From the NCBI GenBank assembly GCA_031283505.1, contig JAITBO010000227.1, positions 1 through 17,770 on the forward strand: DNA of 17,770 bases. The letters run 5' to 3'. The stretch comes from Treponema sp. (lineage in GTDB: Bacteria; Spirochaetota; Spirochaetia; Treponematales; Breznakiellaceae). This document shows, piece after piece, positions 1 through 17,770 of the stretch. How positions within the stretch are numbered: the first letter of the stretch is position 1; each line of letters begins with the position of its first letter. The notes under the pieces were generated by a model. The model was not told the origin of the DNA, did no database searches, and was given only the letters and a program-made list of their open reading frames with translations. A program made the translations under genes and the position numbers.

Positions 1-536
1 GTCTTTTCCGGTTGGGTAAACCGCAGTCCCGGCCACCAGAGGTTTTCGAAGAGCAAAAGCGGCTCCCCTTGAATGTTCGGTGAAATGCGGTTTACCAATT
101 CGATGGATGCGTCCATAACCTCCTCATCAGTATACCGGTAACGACGAGTAAGCGTCTCCCGGGTGGAAACATCGGATACATGAAACACCAGATATTCCGG
201 CGAAAGCCGGTTAGCAAAGACCAGGTTTTTTTCGTACGCCTTAAGGAGCGCCTCCCCCTGGTCCCCGCCGTATACCTTCCGGCAGACCTCCCAACTGCCA
301 TATTCATCAAGAATAGCCTCTTCATCCCTTCGCCATAAACAGACCCAACAGGGGAAAAAGGTCAGATGCACCCCGATTACATCTTCGGGGAAAATGATGT
401 TTTGAGATTCCACGGTCCCTTCCATCACCTCGACGCCGTCCAGTCCATAGTGACGGTAAAAATTTTTTAAATCCTGGTTATCCCGGTACCGGGGGATATC
501 AAAATGACTGGTGGTGATGTTCATAAGTTTTTTCAT
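1..536 (-). CDS. TIM-barrel, sugar-isomerase/endonuclease IV-like protein (C-terminus missing)
   Basis: The frame opens with ATG at 536-534, the base after the TAG stop of the second cobN-like gene, and stays open for 178 codons to the window edge, so the 3' part is missing. A second ATG at 524-522 (Met-5) is an alternative start; neither has a strong ribosome site, and coupling to the upstream stop is likely. Visible segments are GVEVMEG near residue 36, GVHLTFFPCW near 60, YLVFHVSDVSTRE near 120 and LLLFENLWWPGL near 165. These alternating strands with His/Glu-bearing ends resemble xylose-isomerase-like TIM barrels (AP-endonuclease family 2), where such residues bind a divalent metal. The substrate is unknown. 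As last visible gene of a corrinoid import/chelatase operon it may act on a nucleotide-loop sugar or another salvage intermediate, but that is inference. Family assignment is moderate; gene reality is high. Confidence 0.7.
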   Translation of the reverse strand, partial: MKKLMNITTSHFDIPRYRDNQDLKNFYRHYGLDGVEVMEGTVESQNIIFPEDVIGVHLTFFPCWVCLWRRDEEAILDEYGSWEVCRKVYGGDQGEALLKAYEKNLVFANRLSPEYLVFHVSDVSTRETLTRRYRYTDEEVMDASIELVNRISPNIQGEPLLLFENLWWPGLRFTQPEK

Positions 537-3500
537 CTAGTGCTTCTGGGCTTGTAAGGATGATAGGACATCTTCAATTTCCACAAGCTGTTCCCGCCAG
601 CGGGGAATAGTTTCATCGTTGAGGATCTCCACGGTCCCTCCCTGAATGGTTCCAGAGCTTTCTATGCCTCCTTCCAGGTTTCCCTCTATGGAAAGATAGT
701 TGTTTTTTAGTTTTTCCAGAATGGGGGTTTCTCCATGCCACTTGCCCCGGGAATTGAGCTCCAGGAGCCGGCGGGCCATTTCTTCCGCAGCAAAGCGGTT
801 ATGTGCTATAAGCCAATTCCGCATAACCTCATCGTTGATGTAGGATTCCGTCAGGGCATCCAGGGTGGGATCATCAAAACAATCACCCACACACTGGGCA
901 GAAAACACATTTTGGAGCAGCAGTAAGATCTCGGTAGCGCCCTGGTAACCCCGTTCCATGACCCGGTCTTTCCAGAATTCGTTTAAGAGGGTGTCCTGCA
1001 AGGCAGTGTTGATCGCCTTTGACAGGGATTCGGTTTTTACCGGCTTTTTCTGTTCGCTTTTTGTCTGGTACTGGCGGATATGTTTTCCGCTGTAATGTTT
1101 CGCCACCAGGCGGAAGCCCCCCTGTACCTGGGTACTAAAATCACAGGACAGAGGCGTCAAACGGCGGGATTGGGTAACATCACAGGAAAGATCCGTCTCC
1201 CGTAGATTCAGAATAAATTCACGAATACTTTTTCTACCCTCCAGATTTTTCCCATAGGCAAAGGCGGAGTTCTGTACAAAATATTTGGCCAGATCCTTTT
1301 CATCCTTCCATGCGCTGGCCATGAGGGCTAGGTCAAGTCCGGCGCCGTAAGTCCCCGGCGGGTCGCCAAACACGCGGATAGCCCCGTTTCGGTAGGGTTC
1401 TTCTCCGGGAGCTTCCACCAGAGCTATTCCCTGCTGAATATAGCTGCGAACGTGTTTGGCAATGTAGTTATCCTCGTCCGATTCATCCAGCCCTGCGGCG
1501 ATCAGCACGGCCTGATCCATAAGCTCCACTGCTTCAGGATAGGTATCCCGTAATACCCCGGATATGCGGACCGTAACATCGATCCGCGGCCGGCCGAGTT
1601 CGGCCAGATCTATCACTTCAAGACCCGTTACATTTCCCTGGGGGTCCCAGCAGGGCCGGATCCCCAGAAGGTACAAAAACTGTGAGAGCTGTTCACCCCT
1701 GCCGCGGCTGATGTCCAGGGATATCATATTCATGGCTACCTTTTCCGGGAGCCGCCCCTCATCAGCCACGTAGGAGTCCAAAAGCTGCCGGGCCATATCC
1801 ATGCCTCGCTCCCAGGCAATACGGGAAGGCGCCCGGCCGCTCTGCTCCCCCATCATGTTCCGTCCGGTGGGGAGAATCCCGAGGCCGTTGGTATCGGGCA
1901 TACCGCTTTCTCCTGGGGGAATGTAAGCTCCGGCAAGCCCTCGGATAAGCATATCCATTTCCTCCCGAGTCCGGTAAAGACCCGCAACGATCTTCTCCGC
2001 CATTACTGCGGCTTCCGCAGATTCCCGAGGCAGCCCAGCGGCATCAAGGACTTCTACCATGTACCGTTCCCGCTCTTCTGGATCCGGAACTTCGCCGAAT
2101 ACATGGTTTGATCCTATTTGCTGTCCTTGGTCTGTCCGCTTAAGGGCATCGTAAACTTCAGCGAGTCCCTGGTTGAAATCCAAGGCCCTTTTCATTATCC
2201 GGGAAGCAGCGGGTATGTCAGCCACAAGACCTCGGATTTCCTGTTCTAGCCTTTCCTGTTGGCCGTTATCTAGTTCTCGAGCCTGGGTATACGCGGCGAT
2301 AAGGTCCGAAAGACCTCGGGATTTTTTGTCTATCCCCATACTAGCCCGGGGCAGGTGATCCACTATGATTGCCTGAGCCCGCCGTTTAGCGATGAGGCCT
2401 TCGGTAATAACTCCGGCATGGTAAATATACAGTTCCGGCAGGGAACCGAGGACCGCGTGGGGCCAGCACCATTCCGAAAGGGCGTTGGTTTTTCCTGGAA
2501 GCAGTTCCAGGCTTCCCTTGGTTCCTATCTCCACGCAGGCATCGGCTTTGAGGACCTGTTCGATATATCTATAGGAGGCCAGGTACTGATGGGGAGGAGG
2601 ACAAAGGGGATCATGGAGGATCTTGCAGACCTCGCCGGTACATTTTGAACCGTAACACCCCCGCTTGGGCTGTACCATCAGGGTGATGTTACCGAATTGC
2701 AAACCGGTAATGATAATATCCCCATTAATAACCATCCCTTCTCCTGGAGGCGGCCCCCAGGTCTTTTCCATTTGATCTTGCAGTTCCTGGGGCAACGCCC
2801 GGTAATAGGCTTCATATGCTCTTTTCACCGGCATCCGGTACAGGCAGCCTCCGGCTGCAAGAATGTCCTCCACTGCGGTCCAGCGAAAATCGGAGAAGGC
2901 CTTTTTTTCCATAATGTACCCCAGAAGCGCCTGGCCATCAGGAGGTATTTCTCCGGTACTATAACCTTCGTCTTTCAAACGGCCTAGTATCGCTACTGCA
3001 CTCTTAAAAGGATCAAGCCCAAAGGCGCAACCCACCGTAGCCTCTACGCCGTTGCAGACCGCGTTATGCAACATCAGGACCAGTTTCTTTTCAGAGTTTG
3101 GTTTTTTCCGCAGGGACAGCAGTTTGGCGACCCGCCGGCCGAGGAATGTAATCCGTTCAGGGATAGGCTCATGGGGACCCTCTTCCCCTGAAGCAGCGGC
3201 TACCAGGACCGGTTCAATCATGCCGGACATTTCCGGGGTAATAAGGCTCATAGGCATATCCGCGGAAAGGGGCATCGTGCTTTTTCGCCAGGCTTCCCGG
3301 GTCAGGTAAAAGCTCTGTACCGGGGCCAATACGGGGATCCCTAGGGTTTCAAATTCCAGGATCGATTGTTCCATCACACTACGGCCCTTTTCCGCCTTAA
3401 TGGGGAATACCTGAAAATTGATGAGCCCTTCGATGTGTAATTTCCCGTTCAGGGTAAAACACGTGTTAACCATTTCCCGAAAACTCCGGGACTTTTCATC

Positions 3501-4187
3501 GGAACTGGAAAAAACCGGAATACACCCGGCTCCTTCTTTTTCGAGAGCCGCTGCTAGAAGGCGGAAAACCTCAAGCTCATCCTGAACCCAGTTATACCGG
3601 TATATATACATCCCCACATAACCCAGCGGTGGTGGCCCCTCAGGGTACTGTTCCCTCAGATAGAGTTCCAGTGTTTCATAGACCACAGCAGGATCTCCGG
3701 TTAAACTGAAGATGCCAGAAAAGGGCATTTCCCGGGGAACAGGTATGGCTTCGTCAGTTCCGGTTGACTTGTCGGAAGAGTCCTCCTGGAACAGATGCCG
3801 TTGGATATAACGGCCTGCATTGCGGATATTTTCGCTTCCTCCAAAGATAAGGTAGCGGTTGATCGCTTCAAGCACTTCACCGGCAACCGTAGAGGTTCCC
3901 AGGAGTATTGCCTCCGCGCCAATGGGAAGGATATACGCCTCTTGAGGCAGATTCTGGAGAAACGCCTCTACTTCGGCATCCATAGTATGATGACGAAAAA
4001 GGATCACCGTGGGGGATTCCCTAGCTTTGGCAGCGAGGGATGCGGAAAACGCCGCCCCTGGTTTTCCCTGTATGCGGTTTCTTTTAATATGGTTTTGGGA
4101 ATATGATTCCAGGGTAATCCCGGTTTGGGCAAAAAGTTTTCCCCAAATTCGATATTCGCCGTCGCAGTCAATACAGATCAGGTGCAA
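537..4187 (-). CDS. cobN: CobN-like chelatase large subunit 2, with altered metal-site motif
   Basis: This 1216-residue protein is of CobN/ChlH class, the porphyrin/corrin-binding subunit that works with ChlI and ChlD ATPases. Recognisable parts are LMLHN at about 371, CAFGLDP at 387-393, ILHDPLCPPPHQYLASYRYIE around 524-543, GSLELLPGK at 558-566, IAKRRAQAIIVDHLPRASM around 599-617, the segment ending ILPTGRN, and FGDPPGTYGAGLD in the last third. Compared with the neighbouring CobN copy, HVGTHGTLE becomes EIGTKGSLE: both histidines are replaced (Glu-553, Lys-557) while Glu-561 is kept. It also has Cys-511, Cys-516 and Cys-521 as C-x4-C-x4-C just before the ILHDP segment. The N-terminal third is strongly diverged. 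The start is TTG, chosen for a perfect AGGAGG six bases upstream. It overlaps the end of cbiZ by 20 bases. Cobalt insertion is the default family function; a different metal, metal removal or a ring-carrier role is equally open. Confidence 0.88.
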   Translation of the reverse strand: MHLICIDCDGEYRIWGKLFAQTGITLESYSQNHIKRNRIQGKPGAAFSASLAAKARESPTVILFRHHTMDAEVEAFLQNLPQEAYILPIGAEAILLGTSTVAGEVLEAINRYLIFGGSENIRNAGRYIQRHLFQEDSSDKSTGTDEAIPVPREMPFSGIFSLTGDPAVVYETLELYLREQYPEGPPPLGYVGMYIYRYNWVQDELEVFRLLAAALEKEGAGCIPVFSSSDEKSRSFREMVNTCFTLNGKLHIEGLINFQVFPIKAEKGRSVMEQSILEFETLGIPVLAPVQSFYLTREAWRKSTMPLSADMPMSLITPEMSGMIEPVLVAAASGEEGPHEPIPERITFLGRRVAKLLSLRKKPNSEKKLVLMLHNAVCNGVEATVGCAFGLDPFKSAVAILGRLKDEGYSTGEIPPDGQALLGYIMEKKAFSDFRWTAVEDILAAGGCLYRMPVKRAYEAYYRALPQELQDQMEKTWGPPPGEGMVINGDIIITGLQFGNITLMVQPKRGCYGSKCTGEVCKILHDPLCPPPHQYLASYRYIEQVLKADACVEIGTKGSLELLPGKTNALSEWCWPHAVLGSLPELYIYHAGVITEGLIAKRRAQAIIVDHLPRASMGIDKKSRGLSDLIAAYTQARELDNGQQERLEQEIRGLVADIPAASRIMKRALDFNQGLAEVYDALKRTDQGQQIGSNHVFGEVPDPEERERYMVEVLDAAGLPRESAEAAVMAEKIVAGLYRTREEMDMLIRGLAGAYIPPGESGMPDTNGLGILPTGRNMMGEQSGRAPSRIAWERGMDMARQLLDSYVADEGRLPEKVAMNMISLDISRGRGEQLSQFLYLLGIRPCWDPQGNVTGLEVIDLAELGRPRIDVTVRISGVLRDTYPEAVELMDQAVLIAAGLDESDEDNYIAKHVRSYIQQGIALVEAPGEEPYRNGAIRVFGDPPGTYGAGLDLALMASAWKDEKDLAKYFVQNSAFAYGKNLEGRKSIREFILNLRETDLSCDVTQSRRLTPLSCDFSTQVQGGFRLVAKHYSGKHIRQYQTKSEQKKPVKTESLSKAINTALQDTLLNEFWKDRVMERGYQGATEILLLLQNVFSAQCVGDCFDDPTLDALTESYINDEVMRNWLIAHNRFAAEEMARRLLELNSRGKWHGETPILEKLKNNYLSIEGNLEGGIESSGTIQGGTVEILNDETIPRWREQLVEIEDVLSSLQAQKH

Positions 4188-5310
4188 GATTTTCCTCCTG
4201 GGGCTTTGTTTTTTCTTCCCGGCAGAGGAGGAATATCAGACCATCTTCAAGGGCAGCTATCATGGTATCTACGCAGAGGCCGGTCTCGACAGGAAGGGTC
4301 CTGCTTTGCAGCATTGCATCGGGCATTTCCATGATCCGGAGCAGTTCCGCCCCGGCCCGGAGGGCTTCTGCCGGACTGATAAGATCCCATGTAAGCTCAT
4401 CCAACAGGTGGACATACAGGGCCGTATAGGTCAGGGGCATTTCCTGAGGGGATAGTTTTTCTGTCAGGACGGCAAACCGGGCCCGTCTTAGGCCTCCGGG
4501 TCCTGTTCCCCGGGCTTTTTCCCACAGGGAATCCGCGGTAATGCCAAAACGGCTTACCCGGTGCAGTATGCTGTGCTGCGATGCCGCGCAGAGTCCGCTT
4601 TGCAAAAAAAGCGCTTCCTTAACCGCGGCTTTTACAGAACAGCCGATAAGTTCTCCCAGCTTGTGGTGCTTTCCCGCGTCAGTAAGCAGAATGGGTGAAT
4701 CCAGATTCGCAGACAGGATCGTACCGTCCGTACCAGAACCGGTGGCAAGTCCCCGGGAGTATCTGCTGGGGGCAGCCAATTCCTGGAGGGCCGCGGTTTT
4801 TGCCTCTGTACAGGTTACTAAAGCCCTGGTTAAGGCCCCAGGAGTGAGGTTTACATTGATAAAAACCATGCAATTAATGGTACCGGGTTTTTCCCCTTCT
4901 ATTGGTTTTCCACTCATCTCATCCCAGGAAGCAGGGTCCCCGGCGCGGCCGCCGTTTACCTCCACGCCGCCGGTGACTATGGCGGTAACGGTGAGTTTCC
5001 CCCAGGTTTCGGTTTTGATGGAAGCGTTTTCCATGTGAGCCGCAGTAGTAAGTCCGGCGCTTTCTTCCGGTGAAAGACCAAGTTCCCGGGAGAGGATCAC
5101 CATGTGTTCTGCATAGGTAGACGCTTTAAGGGTAACCGCCATACCAGCTCCAACAGTGGCGTCGTGGTTGAATACCGCGGTAAGATCCTCCCTAAGCCCC
5201 CCGTTATGAGGCGCCGTACTGAGAACCCGGCGGCGGCCGGTAAAATTTACCACGATTGATTTTTGATACCGGTGTACTTCTTCACCAGTGCATAACCTAT
5301 AGAGCAGCAT
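4168..5310 (-). CDS. cbiZ: Adenosylcobinamide amidohydrolase CbiZ with C-terminal extension
   Basis: CbiZ cleaves the aminopropanol side-chain linkage of adenosylcobinamide or adenosyl-pseudocobalamin, giving adenosylcobyric acid for rebuilding with another lower ligand. It is a salvage enzyme often found beside BtuCDF transporters. The CbiZ domain covers about residues 25-235 and is very well conserved: STAPHNGG at 31-38, GLTTAAHMENA at 86-96, GGVEVNGGRAGDPASW at 114-129, a GTIN segment at 143-146, LTPGALTRALVT at 155-166 and GLATGSGTDG at 187-196. Residues 236-380 form an extra, apparently helical C-terminal region of unknown role. I chose the ATG at 5310 because GGAGG lies five bases upstream. 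An in-frame ATG at 5322 would add four residues but lacks its own site. CbiZ is the strongest argument that the operon handles corrinoids rather than haem. Confidence 0.93.
   Translation of the reverse strand: MLLYRLCTGEEVHRYQKSIVVNFTGRRRVLSTAPHNGGLREDLTAVFNHDATVGAGMAVTLKASTYAEHMVILSRELGLSPEESAGLTTAAHMENASIKTETWGKLTVTAIVTGGVEVNGGRAGDPASWDEMSGKPIEGEKPGTINCMVFINVNLTPGALTRALVTCTEAKTAALQELAAPSRYSRGLATGSGTDGTILSANLDSPILLTDAGKHHKLGELIGCSVKAAVKEALFLQSGLCAASQHSILHRVSRFGITADSLWEKARGTGPGGLRRARFAVLTEKLSPQEMPLTYTALYVHLLDELTWDLISPAEALRAGAELLRIMEMPDAMLQSRTLPVETGLCVDTMIAALEDGLIFLLCREEKTKPQEENLAPDLY
4194..4199 (-). promoter_or_regulatory. Ribosome binding site AGGAGG for the second cobN-like gene
   Basis: On the minus strand AGGAGG is followed by six bases and then TTG at 4187-4185. 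It is a perfect Shine-Dalgarno core inside the last codons of cbiZ, and it decides the TTG start because no ATG or GTG lies at a suitable distance. Confidence 0.8.
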
Positions 5311-5315
5311 TTTTT

Positions 5316-5320
5316 CCTCC
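5316..5320 (-). promoter_or_regulatory. Ribosome binding site GGAGG for cbiZ
   Basis: GGAGG followed by five A residues and ATG at 5310-5308. The site overlaps the upstream in-frame ATG at 5322-5320, so that ATG is probably not the main start. Confidence 0.7.
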
Positions 5321-5328
5321 ATGATTAT

Positions 5329-7263
5329 TTAATGCCTACCTAACGCCGTCACGATACCCTCTGCCTCTAGTTCTTCCATAGTGATGAGGAGGCCTCCGAG
5401 TTTTTCATGCAGTCTTGTACACATACCCAGACGGATAAAACTATTTTCCGTATCCAGAATGACAGTATGAATTTTCTGATGTCGGATCCGTTCCGCTCCT
5501 GCTAAAGCCTCTCCAAAGGGATCCGAACCGGAACGGCCGCTGGCCCGGCCGTCGGAAACCAGGACCAGGACAGGAATCGTATCAGGGTCCCGACTCCGTA
5601 AACCCAGGATCACTTCGTATGCCAGTTCAAGGCCTCGGGCCAAGGGAGTTGCCCCACCAGTGGGAAGGAGTTCCAGTTTTTTCCGGGCCAGTTCCACCGA
5701 TGAGGTGATCCCCAAAAGTAATTCCGCTCTGTCCCGGCGAAAAGCGATGAGTCCTACCTTGTCCCGTTTTTGGTAGGAGAGGTTCAGCATGGATACTATC
5801 GCGGCCTTTACCGCGGTCATGCGGGCATTTGCACCCATGGAGGCGCTGGCGTCTACCACAAAAAGGATACAACTTCCGCTGCGCCTTTCCCGGATCTTCA
5901 CCCGCAGGTCGGACCCAGAAATGGCGATTGCCTTTCCGCCCTTATCCCGCTGGTTCTGGAAAGGCGCTGCTGCCCGCAGAGTAGCGTCAAAAGCCAAATC
6001 CTGTACCCCTTCCTTGCCGGGCAGACGGTATCCCACATAGCGTCCCTGACGGCGTTTGGTCTGTACTAGATGCCGTTTTCCTGAACCGGTATGCTTTCCC
6101 CGGATATTCCGGGGATCTTGCCACTGTTTAATAACAAAGGATTCTCCCGGTGGCAGAATATTCTCATCAGAGCTGTCGGTTCCCGCGGGATTCCCCGGTT
6201 CATCCGGGAGCCTTTCCCCATCTGAAGCAAGGGTCTGTTCTTCACCATTCCGCGTATCCAGGGAAGGAGTCGTTTCATCCTGCGCCGTATCCAGAACCGA
6301 TTCATTTGTCCGGGATTCCTTGGCATCGTCCTGTTCGGTCTCCGCTTCTTCCGGTTCTTTAATTTCAGGAGGGGGAACAGGCGCGTTTCGGGCCCGGTGG
6401 GCTAAGGCGTATTCTGCGGCTTCCCGGATGTCCTCCAAGTTTACCATGCGGCGGCCTTCAAAAGCGGCATTGGCCCGGGCTGTTTCGATAAGCGCCAGTT
6501 CCCCCCGGTGGCCGGCGCAGTTTGCTTCGGAGGCAAAACGGGCTGCTAGGCGCAGGGCATTTTGGGTCAGTTCCACCCGGGGCAACAGCGCTTTTGCAGC
6601 GGTAATTTTTCCGGCCAGGGTTTCCGTCTCCAGGGCGAAATGTTCCATAAAACCGAAAGGGTCCGCTTCAAAGGCAATACAGCGCCGTAGGATCTCCACC
6701 CTGAGATGGGGGTCCTTTTCACTTGCCACTTCCGTATAGAGGCCAAAACGGTCCAGAAACTGGGGCCTGAGTTCTCCCTCTTCCGGGTTCATACTGCCCA
6801 GCAGCATAAAGCGGCTTGGGTGCCGGGCGGAGATCCCCTCTCGTTCAACCACATTTACTCCCCCGGAAGCTGCATCCAACAGGGCGTTTACGATATGATC
6901 CCCCAGTAGGTTTACCTCATCCACATAGAGGATATGGCCGTCTGCTTCTGCAAGCAACGCCCCGCCAAAGACAGGCCTGCCTGCCTGGAGCGCCGCCTTT
7001 ATGTCAATGGCGCCAACTAAACGATCCTCTGTAACATTGAGGGGACATTCAACAATACGCATACCTCCGGTAAGGGACTGGGAAGCCCGGATCAGGGTTG
7101 ATTTGGCAGTTCCCTTTTCTCCGGCAATGAGCAGCCCCCCTATCCGGGGATTAACCATGACGCGGATAAGGGCCTTTTTTATCCTTTCCTGGCCAAGCAC
7201 CGCGGTAAAGGGAAAAACCGGGGGGCCTTTACGATGCTGAATCGGTTGGTGATTTTCAGTCAA
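5329..7263 (-). CDS. chlD: ChlD/CobT-type chelatase subunit, AAA+ plus VWA domain
   Basis: This is a 644-residue medium subunit that forms the ATPase motor complex with ChlI and docks on the CobN/ChlH-type large subunit in metal chelation. Residues 18-290 are an AAA+ domain with intact Walker [10 protein letters not shown] (48-56), Walker [11 protein letters not shown] (111-120) and the LGSMNPEEGELRPQFLDRFG segment (155-174). Residues 293-380 are a Pro/Glu/Asp-rich, low-complexity linker. Residues 463-640 are a von Willebrand A domain with MIDAS motif DASAS (471-475), a TGGATPL loop (535-541) and a DGR segment (571-573). An intact Walker A/B is notable because the AAA+ half of classical ChlD/BchD is usually degenerate. 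The start is TTG, overlapping the TGA of the first cobN as TTGA, with GAGG seven bases upstream. It probably serves both CobN copies, since only one ChlD is present. Confidence 0.92.
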   Translation of the reverse strand: MTENHQPIQHRKGPPVFPFTAVLGQERIKKALIRVMVNPRIGGLLIAGEKGTAKSTLIRASQSLTGGMRIVECPLNVTEDRLVGAIDIKAALQAGRPVFGGALLAEADGHILYVDEVNLLGDHIVNALLDAASGGVNVVEREGISARHPSRFMLLGSMNPEEGELRPQFLDRFGLYTEVASEKDPHLRVEILRRCIAFEADPFGFMEHFALETETLAGKITAAKALLPRVELTQNALRLAARFASEANCAGHRGELALIETARANAAFEGRRMVNLEDIREAAEYALAHRARNAPVPPPEIKEPEEAETEQDDAKESRTNESVLDTAQDETTPSLDTRNGEEQTLASDGERLPDEPGNPAGTDSSDENILPPGESFVIKQWQDPRNIRGKHTGSGKRHLVQTKRRQGRYVGYRLPGKEGVQDLAFDATLRAAAPFQNQRDKGGKAIAISGSDLRVKIRERRSGSCILFVVDASASMGANARMTAVKAAIVSMLNLSYQKRDKVGLIAFRRDRAELLLGITSSVELARKKLELLPTGGATPLARGLELAYEVILGLRSRDPDTIPVLVLVSDGRASGRSGSDPFGEALAGAERIRHQKIHTVILDTENSFIRLGMCTRLHEKLGGLLITMEELEAEGIVTALGRH

Positions 7264-11009: not shown

Positions 11010-11024
11010 ACCGCTTTGTACCGT

Positions 11025-12212
11025 TTAATCCGGGAGCCGCATATAATTCTTAAGGGTATACCCTTTCAGCAATTCCGGGTGTAACATAAAAACCGTGTCC
11101 AGAAATTTTTCGTCTACTCCGGCGCTGTTCATATAATACCCCTTATCCAGAATGAAGACCCGGTCTTCCTTAAACGCCTTCAATTCCCCCAGCAGCGGAT
11201 CCACATCCAACAGGGCCTTTTTATCTGGACAGTACGCGGGAAGGGAAGTGTAGATAAGCACATCCGCGTCCCCTGCACGATTGATGAATTCCTCCATCCC
11301 CAAACTTATGCCAGCTTTCCCCGGAATATCCCTGAATGCGTATAAGCCGCCGGCCCGGTACAATTCCTGGGCCGTGATGGACTGTCCCCCCTGGGTATAC
11401 ACGATTCCCTCATACACCATAGCAAGGGCCGCAGTCGGCCGCTCTGCCTCGGGTATATCCGCAGTTATGTTGGCTAGTTCTTCTATCCGGGCGAGTTTGG
11501 TTTCAAAGATCTCAGCTGCCAGTTCGTCCAGGTTATAAAAAGCGGCAAAGAATTTGATCCATTCCAGGCCCGCGTTGTTGTCCGGTTCGGTCCAGTTAGT
11601 TACTGCCACATAGGGTATTCCCACCTCGTCCAGCATGGCCCGGAGCAGTACCTGAGATTCTTCTGGACCGCCGGTAAAAACCATTTCCGGGGAAAGGGAC
11701 ACCACTGATTCTATATTTACCGTAGTACGGTGATCCTGGGGGATATATTCGATGGTTCCCTTTGCCAAACCATCCAAGATCTGTGGAATAACCCACTCCT
11801 CAGGAGCGTTCATCACGCCACGGATACTAGCAAAGAGAGAGTCTTCACCCAGGGCTTTGCTCAAGGCATCTATAAAGCCCACCTGGGGAGTAGCGGTATA
11901 GAGGACATGGTTGATCGGTGTGGGGATCACCTGAATCCCTTCATAACCTGGGGGGACTTCCTTTCCCCGGGGCACCAGGAGCCGTTTATTCCCGTCAGAA
12001 TCAGTCAGGAGTTTCACCTGATCCGGTAGGTAGTCAATGGCGAAATTTTTCGCGTATTGGATTGCGGTTTTTCTTGGGGAGCCATTATCCTCTGTTGGGA
12101 CCGGGTTTATCACAGGAGACTGAACAGCACTACTTTTTTTGTTTTCACATCCGGAAAAACACACCGTACCCATAAGCGCGACACAGAACAAAAACAGAAT
12201 ATTTCTTTTCAT
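11025..12212 (-). CDS. btuF: BtuF-like periplasmic binding lipoprotein of a corrinoid ABC importer
   Basis: This 395-residue protein begins with a lysine/arginine N-terminus, a hydrophobic stretch and FSGC ending at Cys-22, a lipoprotein signal with a relaxed lipobox of the kind seen in spirochaetes. A Ser/Pro/Asn-rich tether follows to about residue 45. The mature part has the class III (FhuD/BtuF, Peripl_BP_2) plan: GIQVIPTPINHVLYTATPQV near 91-110 at the first lobe, SVVSLSPEMVFTGG near 168-181, a long connecting helix around 215-250 and a second lobe ending in VFILDKGYYMN. It should capture the ligand on the periplasmic side and hand it to the BtuC permease. The start overlaps the radical SAM stop (ATGA), with AGAAGG six bases upstream. 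The family alone would also allow a haem or siderophore ligand; CbiZ and CobN context favours a corrinoid. Confidence 0.85.
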   Translation of the reverse strand: MKRNILFLFCVALMGTVCFSGCENKKSSAVQSPVINPVPTEDNGSPRKTAIQYAKNFAIDYLPDQVKLLTDSDGNKRLLVPRGKEVPPGYEGIQVIPTPINHVLYTATPQVGFIDALSKALGEDSLFASIRGVMNAPEEWVIPQILDGLAKGTIEYIPQDHRTTVNIESVVSLSPEMVFTGGPEESQVLLRAMLDEVGIPYVAVTNWTEPDNNAGLEWIKFFAAFYNLDELAAEIFETKLARIEELANITADIPEAERPTAALAMVYEGIVYTQGGQSITAQELYRAGGLYAFRDIPGKAGISLGMEEFINRAGDADVLIYTSLPAYCPDKKALLDVDPLLGELKAFKEDRVFILDKGYYMNSAGVDEKFLDTVFMLHPELLKGYTLKNYMRLPD

Positions 12213-13249
12213 AGCATACCTTCTTTTTCTTTAGAGACTTTTTCAGAATCAACCGGGTTTTGAAAAGCCTCTTTACGAGTTATATTTTCAAAAGCATATC
12301 GCTTTATACTACAGTCAGGATCGCCGTTACCGTTCAAAATGAAACGAGCGGGACAGGCTCCATTACAATACCGCTGGTGTGAACAAACACCGCATCGCTG
12401 AGGTCTTGTGTAGCGAAGCGGCAAGCCCTTTAGCCCTGTCCGCACATTCCCCATAGCGTATTCCCGCATACCCGCAAGACTCCCGCAGGGGCAGCATTCC
12501 CCATTCGGCAGGATCACAAAGGAAGCGCCTTGGGCAGCGTAACAGTAATCATTACAGGGAACTTCGGCGGTTTTGAGATAGTGGGCCTTCTCAAATTCCC
12601 GAACCCGAATTTTCCGGGGAGAAAGGGCGTTTATCTCCTTTACCCGCAGGCGGAGCAGTTCCAGACCTCGCGTGAGCGCGGAATCTGAAGGAGGCTTAAT
12701 TTCGGCAATACGGTCCTTGGCCCTGCCCACAAGACGCAACGGGTCAAGGGCGATTCCCTGGACATTCCCCAGGTACACGGCCATATCCGCGGTTTCGTGG
12801 AGTTTTTCCACATTTACATCACACACTACGGTGTTGATATTCACCATGAGTCCCGCTTCCCCCAGCAGCCTGATTCCCCGGATAAGTTCCCGGGTTTTCC
12901 CCCGCAGGTATTCATTGATCTCCGTCCTGCCGTCAAGACTGATCCCCAGGGCAACATGGTATTGTTTCAGCAGTCCGATTACCCCTTCATTCAGCAAGGT
13001 TCCATTGGTTTGCAAGGCAAAGGAAACGCCGGGATTTTTAAACCGGGCATAGCTCATGATCTCCGCCATAAGGTCCGCTCTTAAAAGCGGTTCTCCCCCG
13101 GAAAATTGGATCTTAAAAGGGGGTTTCATGGTTTCTATAGCCATCCGGGCAGTGCTGATATCCATATCATCCGGCGGCACCTGTGCGGCGTAACAGTAAC
13201 GGCACTGTAAGTTACAACGGGATGTGGGCCATAATACCAAAAGCCGCAT
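12209..13249 (-). CDS. Radical SAM protein with SPASM-type C-terminal cysteine cluster
   Basis: The 346-residue protein has the radical SAM motif C-x3-C-x2-C (Cys-12, Cys-16, Cys-19) very near the N-terminus, SAM-binding SGGEP at 50-54, and later barrel segments TNGTL at 81-85 and GISLDGR at 102-108. The C-terminal third is cysteine-rich: Cys-232, Cys-236, Cys-252, Cys-253, Cys-255, then CGVCSHQRYCNGAC at 286-299 and Cys-313. That pattern is typical of SPASM/twitch domains binding auxiliary Fe-S clusters, as in anaerobic sulfatase maturases and peptide-modifying enzymes. It starts one base after the btuD stop and overlaps btuF by four bases, so it is firmly inside the transporter genes. No small precursor peptide is encoded beside it. 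Its substrate is unknown; modification of an imported corrinoid, of a protein partner, or an unrelated role are all possible. An anaerobic lifestyle is implied. Confidence 0.9.
   Translation of the reverse strand: MRLLVLWPTSRCNLQCRYCYAAQVPPDDMDISTARMAIETMKPPFKIQFSGGEPLLRADLMAEIMSYARFKNPGVSFALQTNGTLLNEGVIGLLKQYHVALGISLDGRTEINEYLRGKTRELIRGIRLLGEAGLMVNINTVVCDVNVEKLHETADMAVYLGNVQGIALDPLRLVGRAKDRIAEIKPPSDSALTRGLELLRLRVKEINALSPRKIRVREFEKAHYLKTAEVPCNDYCYAAQGASFVILPNGECCPCGSLAGMREYAMGNVRTGLKGLPLRYTRPQRCGVCSHQRYCNGACPARFILNGNGDPDCSIKRYAFENITRKEAFQNPVDSEKVSKEKEGML
12219..12224 (-). promoter_or_regulatory. Ribosome binding site AGAAGG for btuF
   Basis: AGAAGG, six bases, then ATG at 12212-12210. The site lies in the last codons of the radical SAM gene and supports the ATGA-overlap start, which also gives the expected lipoprotein signal. 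Confidence 0.65.
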
Positions 13250-13250
13250 A

Positions 13251-14468
13251 TCAGTTGCCTTCTTCAGGAGGATATCCGATATCCGAGATCCGGCTGCAAA
13301 GCTCTGCAGCGGATACTGCGGAAAAGAGGTTATCAGCGGCTCCCCAGAGTTCCGCGGTTTCCGCGGATCCCCTAAGGGAAATAACCGGAAAGCCTTTAGC
13401 GATGGCTTCTCCCAGGAGCTGGCGGTTTACCTGGTTGAATTTCCCCAGGGGAAAACCACAATCAATGATAAATTTAGTCTCCTCCATTTTTTTCCAGGCC
13501 TTTTCCGTTGCAGCGCCGCTAATAGGTTCAAAAGGTTTTTCACTGATCCTATATAAACGCATGGAAGAAGCCACCCGGTAATCAATATCGTTTTCCTGCA
13601 GGATCCCTGTAGCAATGCCGTATCCCAATCGGGACAAGATCCGGTACACTGAAGGACCCGTGCCTGCTCCTGCTGCGACAAACACTTCCGGCGTTTTTTC
13701 ATTACAGACTTCCAGCGCCCCGGTTACCGCGTCAAAAGCAGCGCCCTCAATACCGTAAAGTTCCCCGATGGTATTTTCGCCGATAATATCTTCTGGTTTT
13801 CCCTGGGCAAGGACCTTTCCGTTTTTTACCAGTACAAGGGTCTGACAGTTTTTTGCCGCTATATCAATATCATGGAGGACCATGATCACCGTCATGCCCT
13901 GTTCCCGGGAAAGGCGGTTGAGTATCTGTATCACTTCTATTTTGTGTTTGATGTCCAGATGACTTGTGGGTTCATCCAGGATAAGCAGTTCAGGCTCCTG
14001 GGCCAAGGCTCGGGCGATAAGCACCTTCTGTTTTTCGCCGTCACTTAGACTGGTAAAATTCCGTTCCCCCATATCCAGGGCCCCCACGGTTTCCAGCGCT
14101 TCATCTACAATCCGGTGATCTTCCGGTGAGAGGCGTCCCAGAAAATCCGTATGAGGCGAACGTCCCATGGCCACGATTTCCCGGGCATTCGTCATGTTGA
14201 CGTTGAGCCCTTCTGTCAGCACCAGGGCCACCTGTTTCGCCTTTTCCATGGGCTTTATCCGGCTTATTTCCCGTTGGCCTATATACACCGTTCCCTTCAC
14301 CGGGGCAAGAATACCTGCCAGGGTTCTGAGAACCGTTGACTTTCCTGATCCGTTAGGACCGATAAGGCAGATGGTTTGTCCCCGGAGGGCGTTTAAGTCC
14401 AGCTCTTTAACAACCGCTCTTTTGCCATAGCCTGCATCCAAACTGACGGTGGATAGTACTGGGTTCAT
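13251..14468 (-). CDS. btuD: BtuD-type ABC ATPase with extra C-terminal domain
   Basis: The 405-residue protein has an ABC ATPase domain at 1-250: Walker A GPNGSGKST (37-45), signature LSDGE (141-145), Walker B LLILDEPTS (161-169) with D-loop SHLD, and switch His-199. It belongs to the iron-chelate/B12 importer class and energises the BtuC permease. Usual BtuD/FecE proteins are about 250-270 residues. Here residues 256-405 add a second domain beginning VFVAAGAGTGPSV (262-274), a Gly-rich Rossmann-like turn, followed by GILQENDIDYRVA. I recall comparable extensions on corrinoid-type ABC ATPases of other anaerobes; their role is not established to my knowledge. The ATG at 14468 overlaps the btuC stop as ATGA and gives the standard N-terminus. 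A start at 14582 would add 38 residues without homology-like character and lie inside btuC, so I rejected it. Confidence 0.9.
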   Translation of the reverse strand: MNPVLSTVSLDAGYGKRAVVKELDLNALRGQTICLIGPNGSGKSTVLRTLAGILAPVKGTVYIGQREISRIKPMEKAKQVALVLTEGLNVNMTNAREIVAMGRSPHTDFLGRLSPEDHRIVDEALETVGALDMGERNFTSLSDGEKQKVLIARALAQEPELLILDEPTSHLDIKHKIEVIQILNRLSREQGMTVIMVLHDIDIAAKNCQTLVLVKNGKVLAQGKPEDIIGENTIGELYGIEGAAFDAVTGALEVCNEKTPEVFVAAGAGTGPSVYRILSRLGYGIATGILQENDIDYRVASSMRLYRISEKPFEPISGAATEKAWKKMEETKFIIDCGFPLGKFNQVNRQLLGEAIAKGFPVISLRGSAETAELWGAADNLFSAVSAAELCSRISDIGYPPEEGN

Positions 14469-15499
14469 AATGTATCTTTTCGGATCAACAGAAAAACTAC
14501 CAGGGGAGCACCAATAATGGAGGTAACCGCTCCCAGAGGCAGTTCCAGGGGAGAAACGATGTTCCGGGCTACAAAATCGCAAAAGCCGCTTAAAAGGCCG
14601 CCTCCCAGAACCGATGCGGGAATCAAAAGCCTGTTATTGGACGTTTGCAATAGAATCCGGCAGATATGAGGCGCCGCAAGACCGATAAAGGAAACAGGTC
14701 CTGTAAAAGCAGTGGTAACCGCCACCAGGATGCTGGAAATAAGGATGATCCCGTAACGGGTTGCTTTCACATTGATTCCCATACTGTGGGCATACGAATC
14801 CCCCATACTGAGAAGGTTCAGGGGTTTTGCCAGGAGGTAGGATACACCCAAAACGGGTAGGGTTACCCCGTACATCAGTCTTATCTGGGCCCAGGTAAAA
14901 CCGGAAAAGCTCCCCATGTTCCACATAACAAAATTGGTCAGCCGCTGTTTTTCCGCATAAGCGCTGAGTATGCTGGTAGCAGCGCTACAGACATACCCGG
15001 CCATAAGGCCGATGATGAGCAGGGTAACTATACTCTTTACCCGTCCCGCGGCAAAGAGGATTATAGCCATTACCAGCATGGCCCCTAAAAAAGCGCCACC
15101 GAAGAGAAACAGGGGAGTAACCCGGGGCAAACCAAAGGTAAAGCCCCCAAGCATTACCAGCCCCACAAAGAGGGTGGACCCCGAAGTTACCCCCAGTATA
15201 TAGGGTTCGATGATGGGATTGGCGAAGTAGGTTTGCAATAGTAATCCTGATGTCGCCAGAGAGGCGCCCCCTGCCAGGGACGCCAGGGCCCTAGGCAGCC
15301 GTATTTTCTGTATGATGAGAAAATTCTTGTCCTCTTCTGAAGAGGCGCTAAAAAGAACCCGGGCAATTTCGGAGAGATCGATTCTGGCGGAACCCACCCC
15401 CAGGTTGAGCAGAAACATAAACCCTACTCCGATTGCCAAGGCAGCGAAACAGAAAATACGCATAGTGGTTTTTATGTTACTGGTTACGACGCTTTCCAT
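14465..15499 (-). CDS. btuC: BtuC/FecCD-family inner-membrane permease
   Basis: The 344-residue protein is very hydrophobic, with roughly nine or ten membrane segments, the FecCD/BtuC topology. Conserved parts are RIDLSEIARVLF at about 38-49, QKIRLPRALASLAGG at about 64-78, NPIIEPYILGVTSG around 93-106, GPVSFIGLAAPHICR around 266-280 (the GLxxPH motif that contacts the ATPase) and a final PLGAVTSIIGAPLVVFLL helix pair. It forms a homodimeric pore for a corrinoid or other metal chelate with the BtuD-type ATPase encoded next. ATG at 15499 is supported by AGGAG seven bases upstream, and length matches the family. It is separated from chlI by 40 bases, the largest gap in the operon. Confidence 0.92.
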   Translation of the reverse strand: MESVVTSNIKTTMRIFCFAALAIGVGFMFLLNLGVGSARIDLSEIARVLFSASSEEDKNFLIIQKIRLPRALASLAGGASLATSGLLLQTYFANPIIEPYILGVTSGSTLFVGLVMLGGFTFGLPRVTPLFLFGGAFLGAMLVMAIILFAAGRVKSIVTLLIIGLMAGYVCSAATSILSAYAEKQRLTNFVMWNMGSFSGFTWAQIRLMYGVTLPVLGVSYLLAKPLNLLSMGDSYAHSMGINVKATRYGIILISSILVAVTTAFTGPVSFIGLAAPHICRILLQTSNNRLLIPASVLGGGLLSGFCDFVARNIVSPLELPLGAVTSIIGAPLVVFLLIRKDTL

Positions 15500-15506
15500 T
15501 CAGCTT

Positions 15507-15511: not shown

Positions 15512-15539
15512 GGTGGCGATGTAGTGCATCTCAATTTTC

Positions 15540-16568
15540 TTACAGCCCTTCAATCTCTCGAATATCAAATCCCATTTCTTCAAAGGGCTTCCGGCGCATC
15601 CGATGGGGCAGTACCAGTTTTGCCGCTTCTCTCAGGTCTTCTTCCTGAACTTCCCGCCGTCCCCCAAAAGCCGCTAAAGTTATGGCGGTTTTCAGCATCC
15701 CGATATCCGCCCGGTGTCCATCCACTTTCAGCTTGATGCAGATCTTTACTATCTTCTCCAGAATCTCCCTGGAGTACATCACCGCAGCCAAAAGTTCCCG
15801 GGCCCGCAGGATCCGTTCCCGCAGCTTTTCCTGGGCCTCTTCAAAGTTGGCAAAAAATTCCGCCGGGTTATTTTCGAACTTGAGCCGGTTTTCCATAACC
15901 GCCATCCGGACATCTGGGTTTCCTTCTCCGGTAACCGTTACGGATAAACCGAAACGGTCGATAAGCTGGGGCCGGAGATCCCCCTCTTCAGGATTCATGG
16001 TACCCGCCAAGATAAACCGGGCCGGGTGGGAGTAAGAGACCCCCTCCCGTTCCACTGTGTTTACCCCCATAGCAGCGGAATCCAAAAGCACATCCACCAC
16101 ATGATCCTCCAGGAGATTCACCTCGTCCACATAGAGGATGTTCCGGTTTGCCCGGGCGAGGATTCCCGTTTCAAAACGTTTTTCCCCGGTTTTGACCGCG
16201 TATTCCATATCCAGGGTACCCACCACCCGGTCTTCGGTGGCGCTGACCGGTAAGTCAATCACCTGCATGGGAACCGTAACGCTTTCCAGGGGTTCTCCTC
16301 GTTCCAGTTTTTCTGTACATTCCGGGCAGAGCTGGGATGTATCACGGGGATCGCAATTAAAGCGGCAGCCTGTTACCTGTTCCCGCTGGGGAAGCAACTC
16401 TGCCAAAGCCCGAACCGCAGTGGATTTAGCAGTACCCTTTTCACCCCGGATAAGAACGCCTCCCAGCCTGGGGTTTATTGCGTTGAGTACTAGGGCGGTT
16501 TTCATATCCTCTTGTCCGACAATCGCGGTAAAGCAGTATCCCCCTTCAGGCAGGCCGGTAGGTTTCAA
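15540..16568 (-). CDS. chlI: ChlI/BchI-type AAA+ ATPase subunit of Mg/Co chelatase
   Basis: The 342-residue AAA+ protein matches the small chelatase subunit in length and layout. It shows Walker [10 protein letters not shown] (42-50), a four-cysteine insert (Cys-68, Cys-72, Cys-81, Cys-84) also seen in many ChlI proteins, [15 protein letters not shown] (106-120), Walker [11 protein letters not shown] (144-153), and [20 protein letters not shown] (188-207). It hexamerises and, with the ChlD-type protein of this operon, drives ATP-dependent remodelling of the large subunit during metal transfer. It sits far from chlD and both cobN copies, between the receptor and the permease, but on the same predicted transcript. 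The start is TTG, overlapping the receptor's TGA as TTGA, with AGGGG nine bases upstream; no ATG occurs before the conserved FTAIVGQE segment. Confidence 0.93.
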
Positions 16569-17770
16569 TTACCAGCGCCCCTGTTACCGGCCCCGATTCC
16601 CTCAAGGTTCATCCGTAATCCCACGGTAATGGTTAGTCCCGGCATGGGGTATTCGTAAAAAGATTGATAGGAAGCGTTGAGGAGATTGCGGAACACCGCA
16701 AAGGCTGTCAGGTTTTTGCCGATTTTCTGATTGACATTTGCGTTGAGGAGAAAGTGAGAATCCAACACGGTGATATTTGCGGTATCCGAATACCGTTCGC
16801 TTTCAAAGTACCCGGAAATAAGGAGGGAACCGGTTTTCCAAGGCAGGTCAACAGAAAAACCGACCGTATGATCGGGCATATAGGGGATACGCTTTTCCGA
16901 AGAAAAATCATACCCATAGCTTAACAGGTAACTCCGCATATACTGATAGGTAAGGGAGGGAATGATCTTGCTGAAAGGTCCTTTGGAGAGGGGAATAGCC
17001 ACACTGATCTTACTGTCAAGGCCGAAGAAAACCGCCGCGCCCACATTTGAAGGTCTCCAGACTCCCCCTGCCCCCGGCGCCCAGTGAATGGAATCGTTGG
17101 TGTACTGGGTAAAGAATGTAGTATCGAGGCTGAATATTTTATACCGGTAAACCGCTCCCAGATCCGCTCCCCAGCCGTCTTCAGGATTCAGATCAGGATT
17201 ACCAGCTACATCTCCCTGATCCGGCCAGTAGAGGTCCTCAAAATCAGGGTTCTTAAAACTGCGGAAGTAATTATTCCTGATTGTGAAATCCTCCGTAACA
17301 AACCAGGCGAAGCCGAGTTTGGGTACCGGTACAACCGGAGAAGCGCCGTTACTGTTAAAAACCGCTTTTACCGATGGGATAATAAGAAATTTTTCCACGG
17401 GTTTCAATTCACCAGTCAAATACAAACCGCCATCGTGCTGATCACGCCGGTGCATGTCCGTGGAATCAAGGGTGATATACCGGTAATCAGCCCCGGCCTT
17501 CAAAGCGAACCAGGAGAGGGGATACCAGCTCCAGCGGTTTATCGCCGTCATAATATGCTCGTCATGAAGGGAAGAAGCGCCGGCAGGGGGTTCATAGGTC
17601 AGGGTTTCCCAGGTATGACTTAGGGAGGCTTCTGTGGCGAGATCGTCCCGAAAAGCCCGAGGCATATCCAGCATCATGTTTTGCCGGGTGGAGAAATCTT
17701 TTTGCTTTCCTTTTAATTCCGCATAGCCGCTGGTAGGAATGTTTTTATCGCCGTAATAACCGTCGGCAGA
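16565..17770 (-). CDS. btuB: TonB-dependent outer-membrane receptor, BtuB-like (N-terminus missing)
   Basis: The frame is open from the window edge (first full codon at 17770) for 401 codons to TGA at 16567-16565, so only the C-terminal barrel part is present; signal peptide, TonB box and plug lie outside. An internal Met at 17677 is not a real start, because the 31 codons upstream are open and barrel-like. Diagnostic features are alternating amphipathic strands, [20 protein letters not shown] followed by [15 protein letters not shown] (the receptor region around loop GNPxLxPE), and the terminal [19 protein letters not shown] region followed by a last strand [11 protein letters not shown] tail [10 protein letters not shown] follows that strand, where these proteins usually end. 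It should import a corrinoid or similar ligand across the outer membrane using TonB. BtuB is a contextual assignment; ligand specificity cannot be read from sequence. Confidence 0.85.
16578..16582 (-). promoter_or_regulatory. Ribosome binding site AGGGG for chlI TTG start
   Basis: AGGGG, nine bases, TTG at 16568-16566. The site lies in the short Gly/Asn-rich tail of the receptor gene and supports the TTG start and coupling. Confidence 0.5.

What the first reader, a model, noticed from the sequence alone, without database searches (positions are those of the whole stretch)
1..17770. Import, corrinoid salvage and a full metal-chelatase set on one transcript
A receptor, BtuF, BtuC, BtuD and CbiZ are combined with ChlI, ChlD and two CobN-like subunits in one tightly coupled operon, yet no corrin-ring synthesis gene is present. 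Imported corrinoids already hold cobalt, so a chelatase in a salvage operon needs an explanation. Options: uptake of metal-free or wrongly metallated corrinoids followed by cobalt insertion, metal exchange or removal during remodelling, or a tetrapyrrole other than B12. CobN relatives in haem-uptake operons (HmuS with HmuR/T/U/V) are precedent for a chelatase-like protein beside a TonB/ABC importer, but CbiZ points to corrinoids.
Basis: partly seen in the sequence, partly recalled or inferred. Interest (0 to 1): 0.75.

Follow-up and report, generated by a model that had tools for sequence, protein, structure and literature searches.

The report
B12-salvage operon with odd twin chelatases
A termite-gut-type Treponema carries an operon that appears to import and trim vitamin B12-like molecules and, puzzlingly, also encodes a complete metal-handling machine; relatives have B12-sensing RNA switches in front of similar operons, and one of its two large subunits belongs to a subfamily, apparently not described before, with a cysteine-rich loop and a lost catalytic histidine.

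Summary
The substrate is a corrinoid, not haem: CbiZ, a BtuD closest to corrinoid transporters, and cobalamin riboswitches before sister operons. The closest genome held (G001; ten proteins 86-93% identical) has B12-binding proteins but no corrin-ring methylases or CbiB found. Two relatives with ring genes plus this module also encode CbiK and CbiD (early cobalt insertion), so there the chelatase is not the de novo enzyme. The operon type is known (Dehalobacter operon-2, 2015). New here: CobN2 belongs to a phylum-crossing CobN clade (77 of 212 sequences) with a CX4CX4C loop over the active site; the superfamily histidine is replaced in 50 of these 77, while 133 of the other 135 keep it. Most likely CobN1-ChlI-ChlD loads cobalt into cobalt-free or wrongly metallated imported corrinoids, and CobN2 helps handle ring or metal. 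That step is inference; no activity was tested.

The parts
16565..17770 (-). TonB-dependent receptor, C-terminal part (cut by window edge)
   Evidence: TIGR01779 TonB-B12 E 4e-10, far under cut-off; 85% identical over 390 residues to a receptor in G115 that lies behind a cobalamin riboswitch, with one small ORF between
15540..16568 (-). ChlI-type AAA+ motor subunit
   Evidence: TIGR02442 E 5e-150 and TIGR02030 BchI-ChlI E 1e-124, both below cut-off
14465..15499 (-). BtuC permease
   Evidence: PF01032, best NCBIfam BtuC PRK03784, below cut-off
13251..14468 (-). BtuD ATPase with C-terminal extension; ATG at 14468 overlaps btuC by 4 bp
   Evidence: best NCBIfam PRK09536 corrinoid ABC transporter ATPase, E 3e-71, ORF residues 41-392, below cut-off; gap -4 and ATG start
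12209..13249 (-). radical-SAM/SPASM protein (CNLQCRYC plus CX2CX5CX3C near the C-terminus)
   Evidence: PF04055; best NCBIfam rSAM_PapB, then TIGR04083, NirJ2, all far below cut-off; cysteine positions
11025..12212 (-). BtuF-like periplasmic binding lipoprotein
   Evidence: PF01497 E 8e-13; lipoprotein signal is my reading of the N-terminus
7260..11009 (-). CobN1, canonical class-I chelatase large subunit (GTHGTLEWLPGK)
   Evidence: TIGR02257 cobalto_cobN 925 bits, above cut-off 822; nearest solved relative M. tuberculosis CobN 7c6o
5329..7263 (-). ChlD-type AAA+/VWA subunit; DASAS MIDAS motif
   Evidence: TIGR02442, TIGR02031, below cut-off; motif
4168..5322 (-). CbiZ, corrinoid amidohydrolase with a C-terminal extension of about 150 aa
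   Evidence: PF01955 E 1e-56, residues 27-234
537..4187 (-). CobN2, Cys-loop CobN (C511, C516, C521, C529) with the superfamily histidine replaced by Lys557
   Evidence: PF02514; under every NCBIfam CobN cut-off listed; motif and clade
3..536 (-). N-terminal half of a xylose-isomerase-like TIM-barrel protein, possible CbiR-like remodelling phosphodiesterase
   Evidence: ORF of the G001 ortholog hits PF01261 below cut-off; the G071 ortholog's only NCBIfam match at E<=1 is CbiR NF041277, E 0.005, 16 bits of 105 needed; alignment

Best explanation
This is a corrinoid scavenging and remodelling operon of a Treponema. Shown by sequence: a TonB receptor and BtuFCD-type importer; CbiZ and possibly a CbiR-like enzyme for removing the nucleotide loop; a complete class-I chelatase (CobN1, ChlI, ChlD) plus a second divergent CobN (CobN2) and a radical-SAM enzyme in the same operon. 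Inferred: CobN1-ChlI-ChlD uses ATP to put cobalt into imported corrin rings that lack cobalt or carry another metal, so that rings which would be dead as cofactors become usable; CobN2, whose Cys loop lies over the active-site cleft and whose axial histidine is gone, handles the ring or the metal (takes out the wrong one, supplies cobalt, or only binds the ring). The finished corrinoid is rebuilt by CobS (present in G001) and used by B12-dependent enzymes.
For: Corrinoid substrate: CbiZ and a BtuD closest to corrinoid transporters; cobalamin riboswitches in front of CobN-module genes in G047, G177, G282 (two) and G272 (two, and a third in the fetched stretch), and in front of the receptor ortholog in G115. 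Salvage setting: in G001 no ring methylases and no CbiB were found, but CobS and five B12-binding proteins, one in a 1247-aa frame of MetH size. Not the de novo chelatase: G071 and G086 carry CbiK and CbiD as well; 4 of 4 ring-bearing genus mates have no CobN. Insertion direction: CobN1 keeps the canonical residues and has both motor subunits, whereas the dechelatase HmuS needs NADH and no ATP. B12-linked control, as in Dehalobacter operon-2 (46-fold up in starvation), fits supply rather than disposal.
Against: A natural supply of metal-free or wrongly metallated corrinoids to gut bacteria is not shown; none of the 15 and 10 titles and abstract beginnings listed reports one. No CobW-like cobalt supplier is in the operon. 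In G001 no CbiB was found, so cobyric acid made by CbiZ would be a dead end unless the MAG is incomplete; the CbiR route avoids this only if the weak CbiR assignment is right. No riboswitch is seen in the G001 operon itself. In G047 and G272 no CbiK was seen in the fetched stretches, so there the chelatase could still serve synthesis. The pair is not universal: G047 shows no CobN2 and both CobN of G272 lack the Cys loop. HmuS loses its turnover when this histidine is changed to alanine, so CobN2 may be catalytically dead.
Confidence: 0.42

Rival explanations
1. Corrinoid de-chelatase for cobalt: the operon strips imported corrinoids with CbiZ/CbiR and pulls cobalt out, as HmuS pulls iron out of haem, feeding cobalt to synthesis or disposing of unusable analogues; an ABC-2 exporter in some relatives would remove the empty ring.
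For: HmuS is a proven precedent in the same superfamily. CobN2 has a thiolate loop. ABC-2 transporter genes lie in the module of G272 and G282 and after CbiZ in G047. CbiZ without a CbiB found in G001, G177 and G115 would make a dead-end product.
Against: G001 has no ring pathway found that would use free cobalt. Sister operons are under cobalamin riboswitches and Dehalobacter operon-2 is induced by corrinoid starvation, the wrong time to destroy corrinoids. 6 of 6 further CobN-bearing genomes have CbiB (CbiZ was seen in two of them). HmuS needs the histidine that CobN2 lacks.
Confidence: 0.2
2. CobN1, CobN2, ChlI and ChlD do not change the metal: they act as an ATP-driven corrinoid-handling machine (binding, delivery to CbiZ/CbiR, or reactivation), with CobN2 a non-catalytic binding subunit.
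For: CobN2 falls under all NCBIfam CobN cut-offs listed and lacks the superfamily histidine; changing that histidine in HmuS leaves haem binding but no turnover; HmuS binds a non-substrate haem at its head and neck.
Against: CobN1 keeps the canonical chelatase residues; the Cys-loop clade keeps the catalytic glutamate column (E in 67 of 77) and CobN2 is under the same purifying selection as the rest.
Confidence: 0.15
3. Ordinary late cobalt insertion for de novo B12 synthesis that happens to lie with a transporter.
For: CobN1 scores above the cobaltochelatase cut-off; in G071 the CbiZ-CobN2 part lies on the same contig as ring genes.
Against: No ring methylases found in G001; G071 and G086 have CbiK and CbiD; 4 of 4 ring-bearing genus mates lack CobN.
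Confidence: 0.05
4. The substrate is haem or another tetrapyrrole, and the operon is a haem/iron uptake system, as suggested for the similar Treponema denticola genes.
For: HmuS precedent in Bacteroidota; the T. denticola cluster TDE_0746-0750 has been discussed as possible hemin-iron uptake, and no cobalamin riboswitch is found beside the like cluster of G359. B. fragilis BtuS1/BtuS2 are a weaker precedent: the double mutant still removed iron from haem.
Against: CbiZ, a BtuD closest to corrinoid transporters, a weakly CbiR-like protein and cobalamin riboswitches in front of sister operons; CobN1/CobN2 show no membrane segment and no methionine-rich insert, which mark HmuS.
Confidence: 0.05
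5. The module makes a changed corrinoid: cobalt is exchanged for another metal or a ring side chain is altered by the radical-SAM enzyme, giving a new cofactor.
For: Two chelatase types and a SPASM radical-SAM enzyme recur on the same contigs across phyla (26 shared contig lengths); CN-hydrolase and 4Fe-4S protein genes join the module in G272 and G282.
Against: No product is known; the radical-SAM gene is missing in G086; ordinary salvage explains most parts.
Confidence: 0.13

Closest known systems
Dehalobacter restrictus operon-2 / Acetobacterium woodii corrinoid salvage operon (PMC4285132, passages and one section read)
   Same: BtuCDF-like transporter, CbiZ, CobN and Mg-chelatase-type subunits in one cluster; cobalamin riboswitch; induced by corrinoid starvation
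   Different: Two CbiZ, and an ECF cobalt transporter in the operon before it; the passages seen name one CobN and no radical-SAM, CbiR or Cys-loop CobN; here a TonB receptor, radical-SAM, CbiR-like gene and two CobN types. The operon could not be fetched; a Dehalobacter CobN is 49% identical to CobN1, and an Acetobacterium paludosum contig carries both CobN types.
CobNST / CobN-ChlID late cobaltochelatase
   Same: CobN1 fold, conserved active-site motif, AAA+ and VWA motor subunits
   Different: Lies in a salvage operon without ring genes; two relatives with ring genes use CbiK and CbiD; a second, His-less CobN is present
HmuS/BtuS haem de-chelatase
   Same: CobN-superfamily protein encoded beside a TonB/ABC importer
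   Different: HmuS is membrane-anchored, has a methionine-rich insert, needs NADH and no ATP, and acts on haem; CobN1 and CobN2 show neither anchor nor insert and come with ATPase subunits
CbiZ cobinamide/cobamide amidohydrolase systems (Rhodobacter, archaea, Dehalococcoides)
   Same: CbiZ beside BtuFCD
   Different: Class-I chelatase and radical-SAM enzyme added
CbiR of Akkermansia (PMC7733943, passages and one section read)
   Same: Xylose-isomerase-like TIM-barrel family with His/Asp/Glu residues, next to corrinoid genes
   Different: Sequence similarity is at the edge of detection

Membership tests
Corrinoid uptake/salvage operon (Dehalobacter operon-2 type) | BtuFCD-type importer together with CbiZ | tested here: met
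Corrinoid uptake/salvage operon (Dehalobacter operon-2 type) | CobN plus Mg-chelatase-type subunits in the same operon | tested here: met
   (ChlI and ChlD by best match, below cut-off)
Corrinoid uptake/salvage operon (Dehalobacter operon-2 type) | cobalamin riboswitch control | tested here: inconclusive
   none in the window or in G001 contig C6; the window's promoter is cut off; present at CobN-module genes in G047, G177, G282, G272
Late cobaltochelatase of de novo synthesis | cobalt-late ring pathway in the same genome without CbiK/CbiX | tested here: not met
   G001: no ring methylases found; G071, G086: CbiK and CbiD present. Window's own genome not held; G047 and G272 open
Late cobaltochelatase of de novo synthesis | CobN above curated cut-off, with AAA+ and VWA partners | tested here: met
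   CobN1 925 bits against 822; partners present, below their cut-offs; CobN2 fails this cut-off
HmuS/BtuS de-chelatase | membrane anchors at the termini and methionine-rich insert | tested here: not met
   highest 19-residue hydropathy 1.26 and 1.42; at most 4 and 7 Met per 60 residues
HmuS/BtuS de-chelatase | active-site His538 and His1209 | tested here: not met
   CobN1 has one of the two (His548; Asp at the 1209 position), CobN2 neither (Lys557, Phe); 1209 read by me from alignments
HmuS/BtuS de-chelatase | NADH-dependent iron release from haem | not testable with these tools
   needs an assay
CbiR | match above NCBIfam NF041277 cut-off | tested here: not met
   G071 ortholog 16.4 bits of 105, its only match; G001 ortholog no CbiR match
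CbiR | His/Asp/Glu metal ligands of the superfamily | tested here: inconclusive
   His, Glu, Asp positions conserved between G001 and G071, but not aligned to CbiR itself
CbiZ | PF01955 domain above cut-off | tested here: met
   192 bits against 27

The most novel reading that the evidence does not exclude
CobN2 is the type member of a new kind of class-I chelatase relative: a Cys-loop CobN that holds or moves metal through thiolates (or an iron-sulphur cluster) instead of the axial histidine, and works as a pair with a canonical CobN-ChlI-ChlD to exchange the metal of imported corrinoids. Organisms that cannot build the corrin ring would thus use a demetallate-and-remetallate route to turn unusable corrinoids into B12.
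Probability: 0.17. Interest if true: 0.85.

Novelty: new variant of a known kind. Interest (0 to 1): 0.58.

Why it matters
Why strict anaerobes that insert cobalt early, or that cannot build the ring at all, carry 'aerobic' CobN genes is a question that papers raise without an answer (passages). This operon places a complete chelatase in a corrinoid-salvage setting, gives a cross-phylum set of relatives, and singles out a testable subfamily (Cys-loop CobN) with a defined sequence change at the active site. If cobalt insertion or exchange is shown, metal repair becomes a new step of B12 sharing in gut communities.

Tried and rejected
Searching the window's own genome: none is held; the closest relative G001 was used instead. 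Absence in G001 rests on a MAG of unknown completeness; RsmI, CobS and a HemC-CobA-HemD fusion were found, which argues against gross incompleteness but does not exclude missing contigs.

Late-insertion and haem readings: rejected as main readings for the reasons under rivals. A corrinoid-catabolism reading looked strong when CbiB was not found in G001 and G177; it was downgraded after 6 of 6 further CobN-bearing genomes had CbiB, riboswitches appeared and the TIM-barrel gene showed a weak CbiR match.

Plasmid and viral collections: 159 plasmid records hold CobN-type matches, the best under 33% identical to CobN2 among the 15 listed; the 10 listed radical-SAM hits of 644 plasmid records were under 30% identical; no viral contig. 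A structure prediction of the CbiR-like protein failed (mean pLDDT 32, two sequences) and is not used. PADLOC gave only distant viperin-type matches for the radical-SAM protein and one weak AAA match for ChlD. No solved relative of CbiZ or of the CbiR-like protein was found by sequence.

No paper seen describes the Cys-loop CobN family: searches (listings; passages of twelve papers seen, and one section each of PMC4285132 and PMC7733943). Subscription papers, among them Rodionov 2003, were not available.


Full report
What is there. Eleven genes lie on the minus strand with gaps of -20 to +40 bp: TonB receptor (cut), ChlI, BtuC, BtuD, radical-SAM/SPASM, BtuF, CobN1, ChlD, CbiZ, CobN2, and a xylose-isomerase-like TIM barrel (cut). 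Of the NCBIfam names only CobN1's (TIGR02257) passes its curated cut-off; ChlI, ChlD, BtuC, BtuD and the receptor are named by best match. BtuD's best match is the corrinoid ABC transporter ATPase PRK09536, extending into its C-terminal extension. The radical-SAM protein has CX3CX2C near its N-terminus and CX2CX5CX3C near its C-terminus (that this is the SPASM pattern is recalled).

Whose operon. No whole genome is held for the window. The closest found is Treponema sp. MAG Cc175_bin63 (JAIRLU010000131.1, CbiZ 91%), genome G001. Its contig C6 carries the same eleven genes in the same order. Ten proteins are 86-93% identical to the window's, the receptor 58%; dN/dS is 0.12-0.23 for the ten, and the receptor is saturated at silent sites.

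Ring synthesis. In G001 the tetrapyrrole-methylase family PF00590 has 3 matches: a HemC-CobA-HemD fusion, RsmI and an RsmI fragment (my reading of the sequences). In the genus, 4 of 11 genomes (G002, G007, G009, G011) have three more such genes on one contig; 7 of 11 do not. CbiB is in 7 of 16 genomes tested and not found in G001, G115, G177 and six genus mates. CobS is in 13 of 16, G001 included. G001 has five B12-binding matches, one in a 1247-aa frame of MetH size. So G001 looks like a corrinoid-dependent salvager. Completeness of this MAG is unknown.

Where the module occurs. CbiZ is in 6 of 195 genomes of the family. CobN was tested in 10 genomes: 5 of the 6 CbiZ genomes have it (G177 only a fragment at a contig end; G115 none) and 0 of the 4 ring-bearing genus mates. 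Gene order (partly my reading): G086 as in the window but without radical-SAM, and cut at ChlI; G047 ChlI, ChlD, BtuC, BtuD, radical-SAM, BtuF, CobN1, CbiZ, with internal deletions in BtuF and CobN1 and no CobN2; G177 BtuF, CbiZ, CobN2; G071 BtuF, CbiZ, CobN2 (Cys loop, GTDG) on one contig, and BtuD end, ChlD (split), CobN1, CbiR-like, CobN2 end on another (motifs). A search of 392 genomes of the phylum with twelve Cys-loop CobN sequences found CobN-type genes in 7, G001 included. G272 and G282 have wide modules that add a TonB-type gene, CN-hydrolase, 4Fe-4S protein and ABC-2 transporter, and in G282 a BtuR-type gene. Against a fixed pair: of the six other genomes, G282 has a Cys-loop CobN besides canonical ones (there with His), both CobN of G272 lack the loop, and the G214, G359 and G367 clusters show one CobN and no CbiZ nearby.

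Not the de novo chelatase. G071 and G086 encode CbiK (263 and 274 bits, cut-off 26) and CbiD (354 and 373 bits, cut-off 200) next to ring genes. So cobalt goes in early there, and the CobN set must do something else. In G047 and G272, which have CbiD, no CbiK was in the fetched stretches, so those two do not testify.

Corrinoid, not haem. Cobalamin riboswitches lie in front of BtuF-CbiZ-CobN2 in G177 (L019), BtuC onwards in G047 (L017), CobN1-CobN2 and the CbiZ operon in G282 (L058, L060), receptor-CobN and the CbiZ operon in G272 (L061, L062, which holds one more), and, with one small ORF between, the receptor in G115 (L021) that is 85% identical to the window's. In G326 two lie in or near the ring genes (L063, L064). 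In G071 the riboswitch points away from the CobN genes, towards CbiK (L020). None is seen in G086's cut locus (L016), in G001, in the window, or near the cluster of G214, G359 and G367. The last gene's G071 ortholog matches CbiR only, weakly (E 0.005); CbiR is a TIM-barrel enzyme that cuts cobamides to cobinamide phosphate (PMC7733943), which would bypass the missing CbiB.

The two CobN proteins. CobN1 has the canonical motif GTHGTLEWLPGK. CobN2 reads GTKGSLELLPGK. The histidine is described as apparently strictly conserved across the superfamily (HmuS His538, M. tuberculosis CobN His522; PMC12583661), and HmuS H538A binds haem but makes no product. Of 224 listed CobN-type proteins, 212 of 1050-1500 aa were aligned: 77 have at least three cysteines in the loop PKRGCYGxKCTGEVC; in these the residue is H 27, D 19, E 18, K 10, G 3. 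In the 135 others it is H in 133; the remaining 2 show F, with a gap at the glutamate column, so they are probably misaligned. The sample is what two similarity searches listed, not a survey. The 77 form one clade, support 1.0. Twelve of them share invariant C378, C511, C516 and C521. By spacing, CobN2 H525 to K557 equals HmuS H506 to H538 (32 residues), so the Cys loop is HmuS loop I, which is said to gate the cleft; C521 takes the place of HmuS F502. HmuS Asp1208-His1209 corresponds to Asp-Asp in CobN1 and Asp-Phe in CobN2 (read by me). The glutamate column stays E in 67 of 77. Neither CobN shows a membrane segment or methionine-rich insert.

A cross-phylum module. Lists: 83 Cys-loop rows of the 104 CobN2 hits, the 120 listed of 391 CobN1 hits, and the 120 listed of 4221 radical-SAM hits. 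They share 26 contig lengths exactly (4 with all three proteins, among them the window and G001); none differ by 1-3 bases. Equal length stands in for the same contig; 13 of the 26 are at most 31.3 kb, while the longer ones, two of them chromosome-sized, show no adjacency. Named sources on shared contigs outside the spirochaetes are Coriobacteriia, Actinomycetia, Eubacteriales, Acetobacterium, Dehalobacter and Contubernalis. Their CbiZ and transporter neighbours were not seen.

What is known. Dehalobacter restrictus operon-2 combines FepBCD/BtuCD-like transporters, two CbiZ, CobN and Mg-chelatase subunits; its proteins rise on average 46-fold in corrinoid starvation; it is syntenic with Acetobacterium woodii and thought to relieve a lost cbiH (PMC4285132). 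For Haloferax, a late chelatase without a late pathway was guessed to serve salvage (PMC8305020). cobN in an obligate anaerobe has been called surprising (PMC9834392). A 2021 Chlorobium study notes a CobN/BchHID cluster besides CbiK and CbiZ (PMC8620254). For the T. denticola homologs, hemin-iron uptake has been suggested (PMC12724145).

Mechanism. Shown: gene content, family membership, selection, B12-linked control in relatives. Inferred: import of corrinoids, removal of the loop by CbiZ/CbiR-like, cobalt insertion by CobN1-ChlI-ChlD into rings without cobalt or with a wrong metal, and ring or metal handling by CobN2. I favour insertion over removal because both motor subunits are kept while HmuS needs no ATP, CobN1 is canonical, sister systems are controlled by B12, and G001 has no ring pathway found that would use free cobalt. 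The main weakness is that a natural supply of such corrinoids is not shown.

Verdict. A genuine, conserved corrinoid-salvage operon of a published type, in a new host group, with a Cys-loop CobN subfamily, unremarked in the searches made, as its most interesting part.

Noticed in passing
L036 3590-7178 (G086); L028 about 7701-11550 (G047): Nitrogenase-like genes (NifH/CfbC-like part, E 1e-95, joined to a component-1-like part, plus a separate component-1 protein) near ABC transporter genes and CobS in G086; similar reading frames in the ring cluster of G047 (my reading). Possibly an unknown tetrapyrrole or corrinoid reductase.
   Followed up: partly
L062 8717-10195, 11394-11786; L060 12754-14226 (G272, G282): A CN-hydrolase (nitrilase family) lies between CbiZ and radical-SAM, and a 4Fe-4S protein before CbiZ, in the modules of two further spirochaete genomes.
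   Followed up: partly
L061 17303-19017; L060 1202-2907; L017 16972-18468: ABC-2 type transporter genes belong to or adjoin the module in three genomes; the cargo is unknown.
   Followed up: no
L037 693-3137 (G001): A HemC-CobA-HemD fusion is kept in G001 although no further ring genes were found; probably for sirohaem.
   Followed up: no
L017 12319-15799 (G047): BtuF and CobN1 carry internal deletions and run into each other; decay or assembly error.
   Followed up: no
L066 5022-15142 (G359, taken as Treponema denticola): BtuFCD, CobN, ChlD, ChlI operon without CbiZ in the fetched stretch; it differs from the gut type and has no cobalamin riboswitch nearby.
   Followed up: partly
L062 3917-7690, L060 7925-11716: In the modules of G272 and G282 one CobN carries an extra GLHGG(S/E)ESCP stretch besides the canonical motif; unexplained.
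   Followed up: no
window 4168-5322, residues 240-384 of CbiZ: A C-terminal extension of about 150 aa with no family match, shared with relatives.
   Followed up: no
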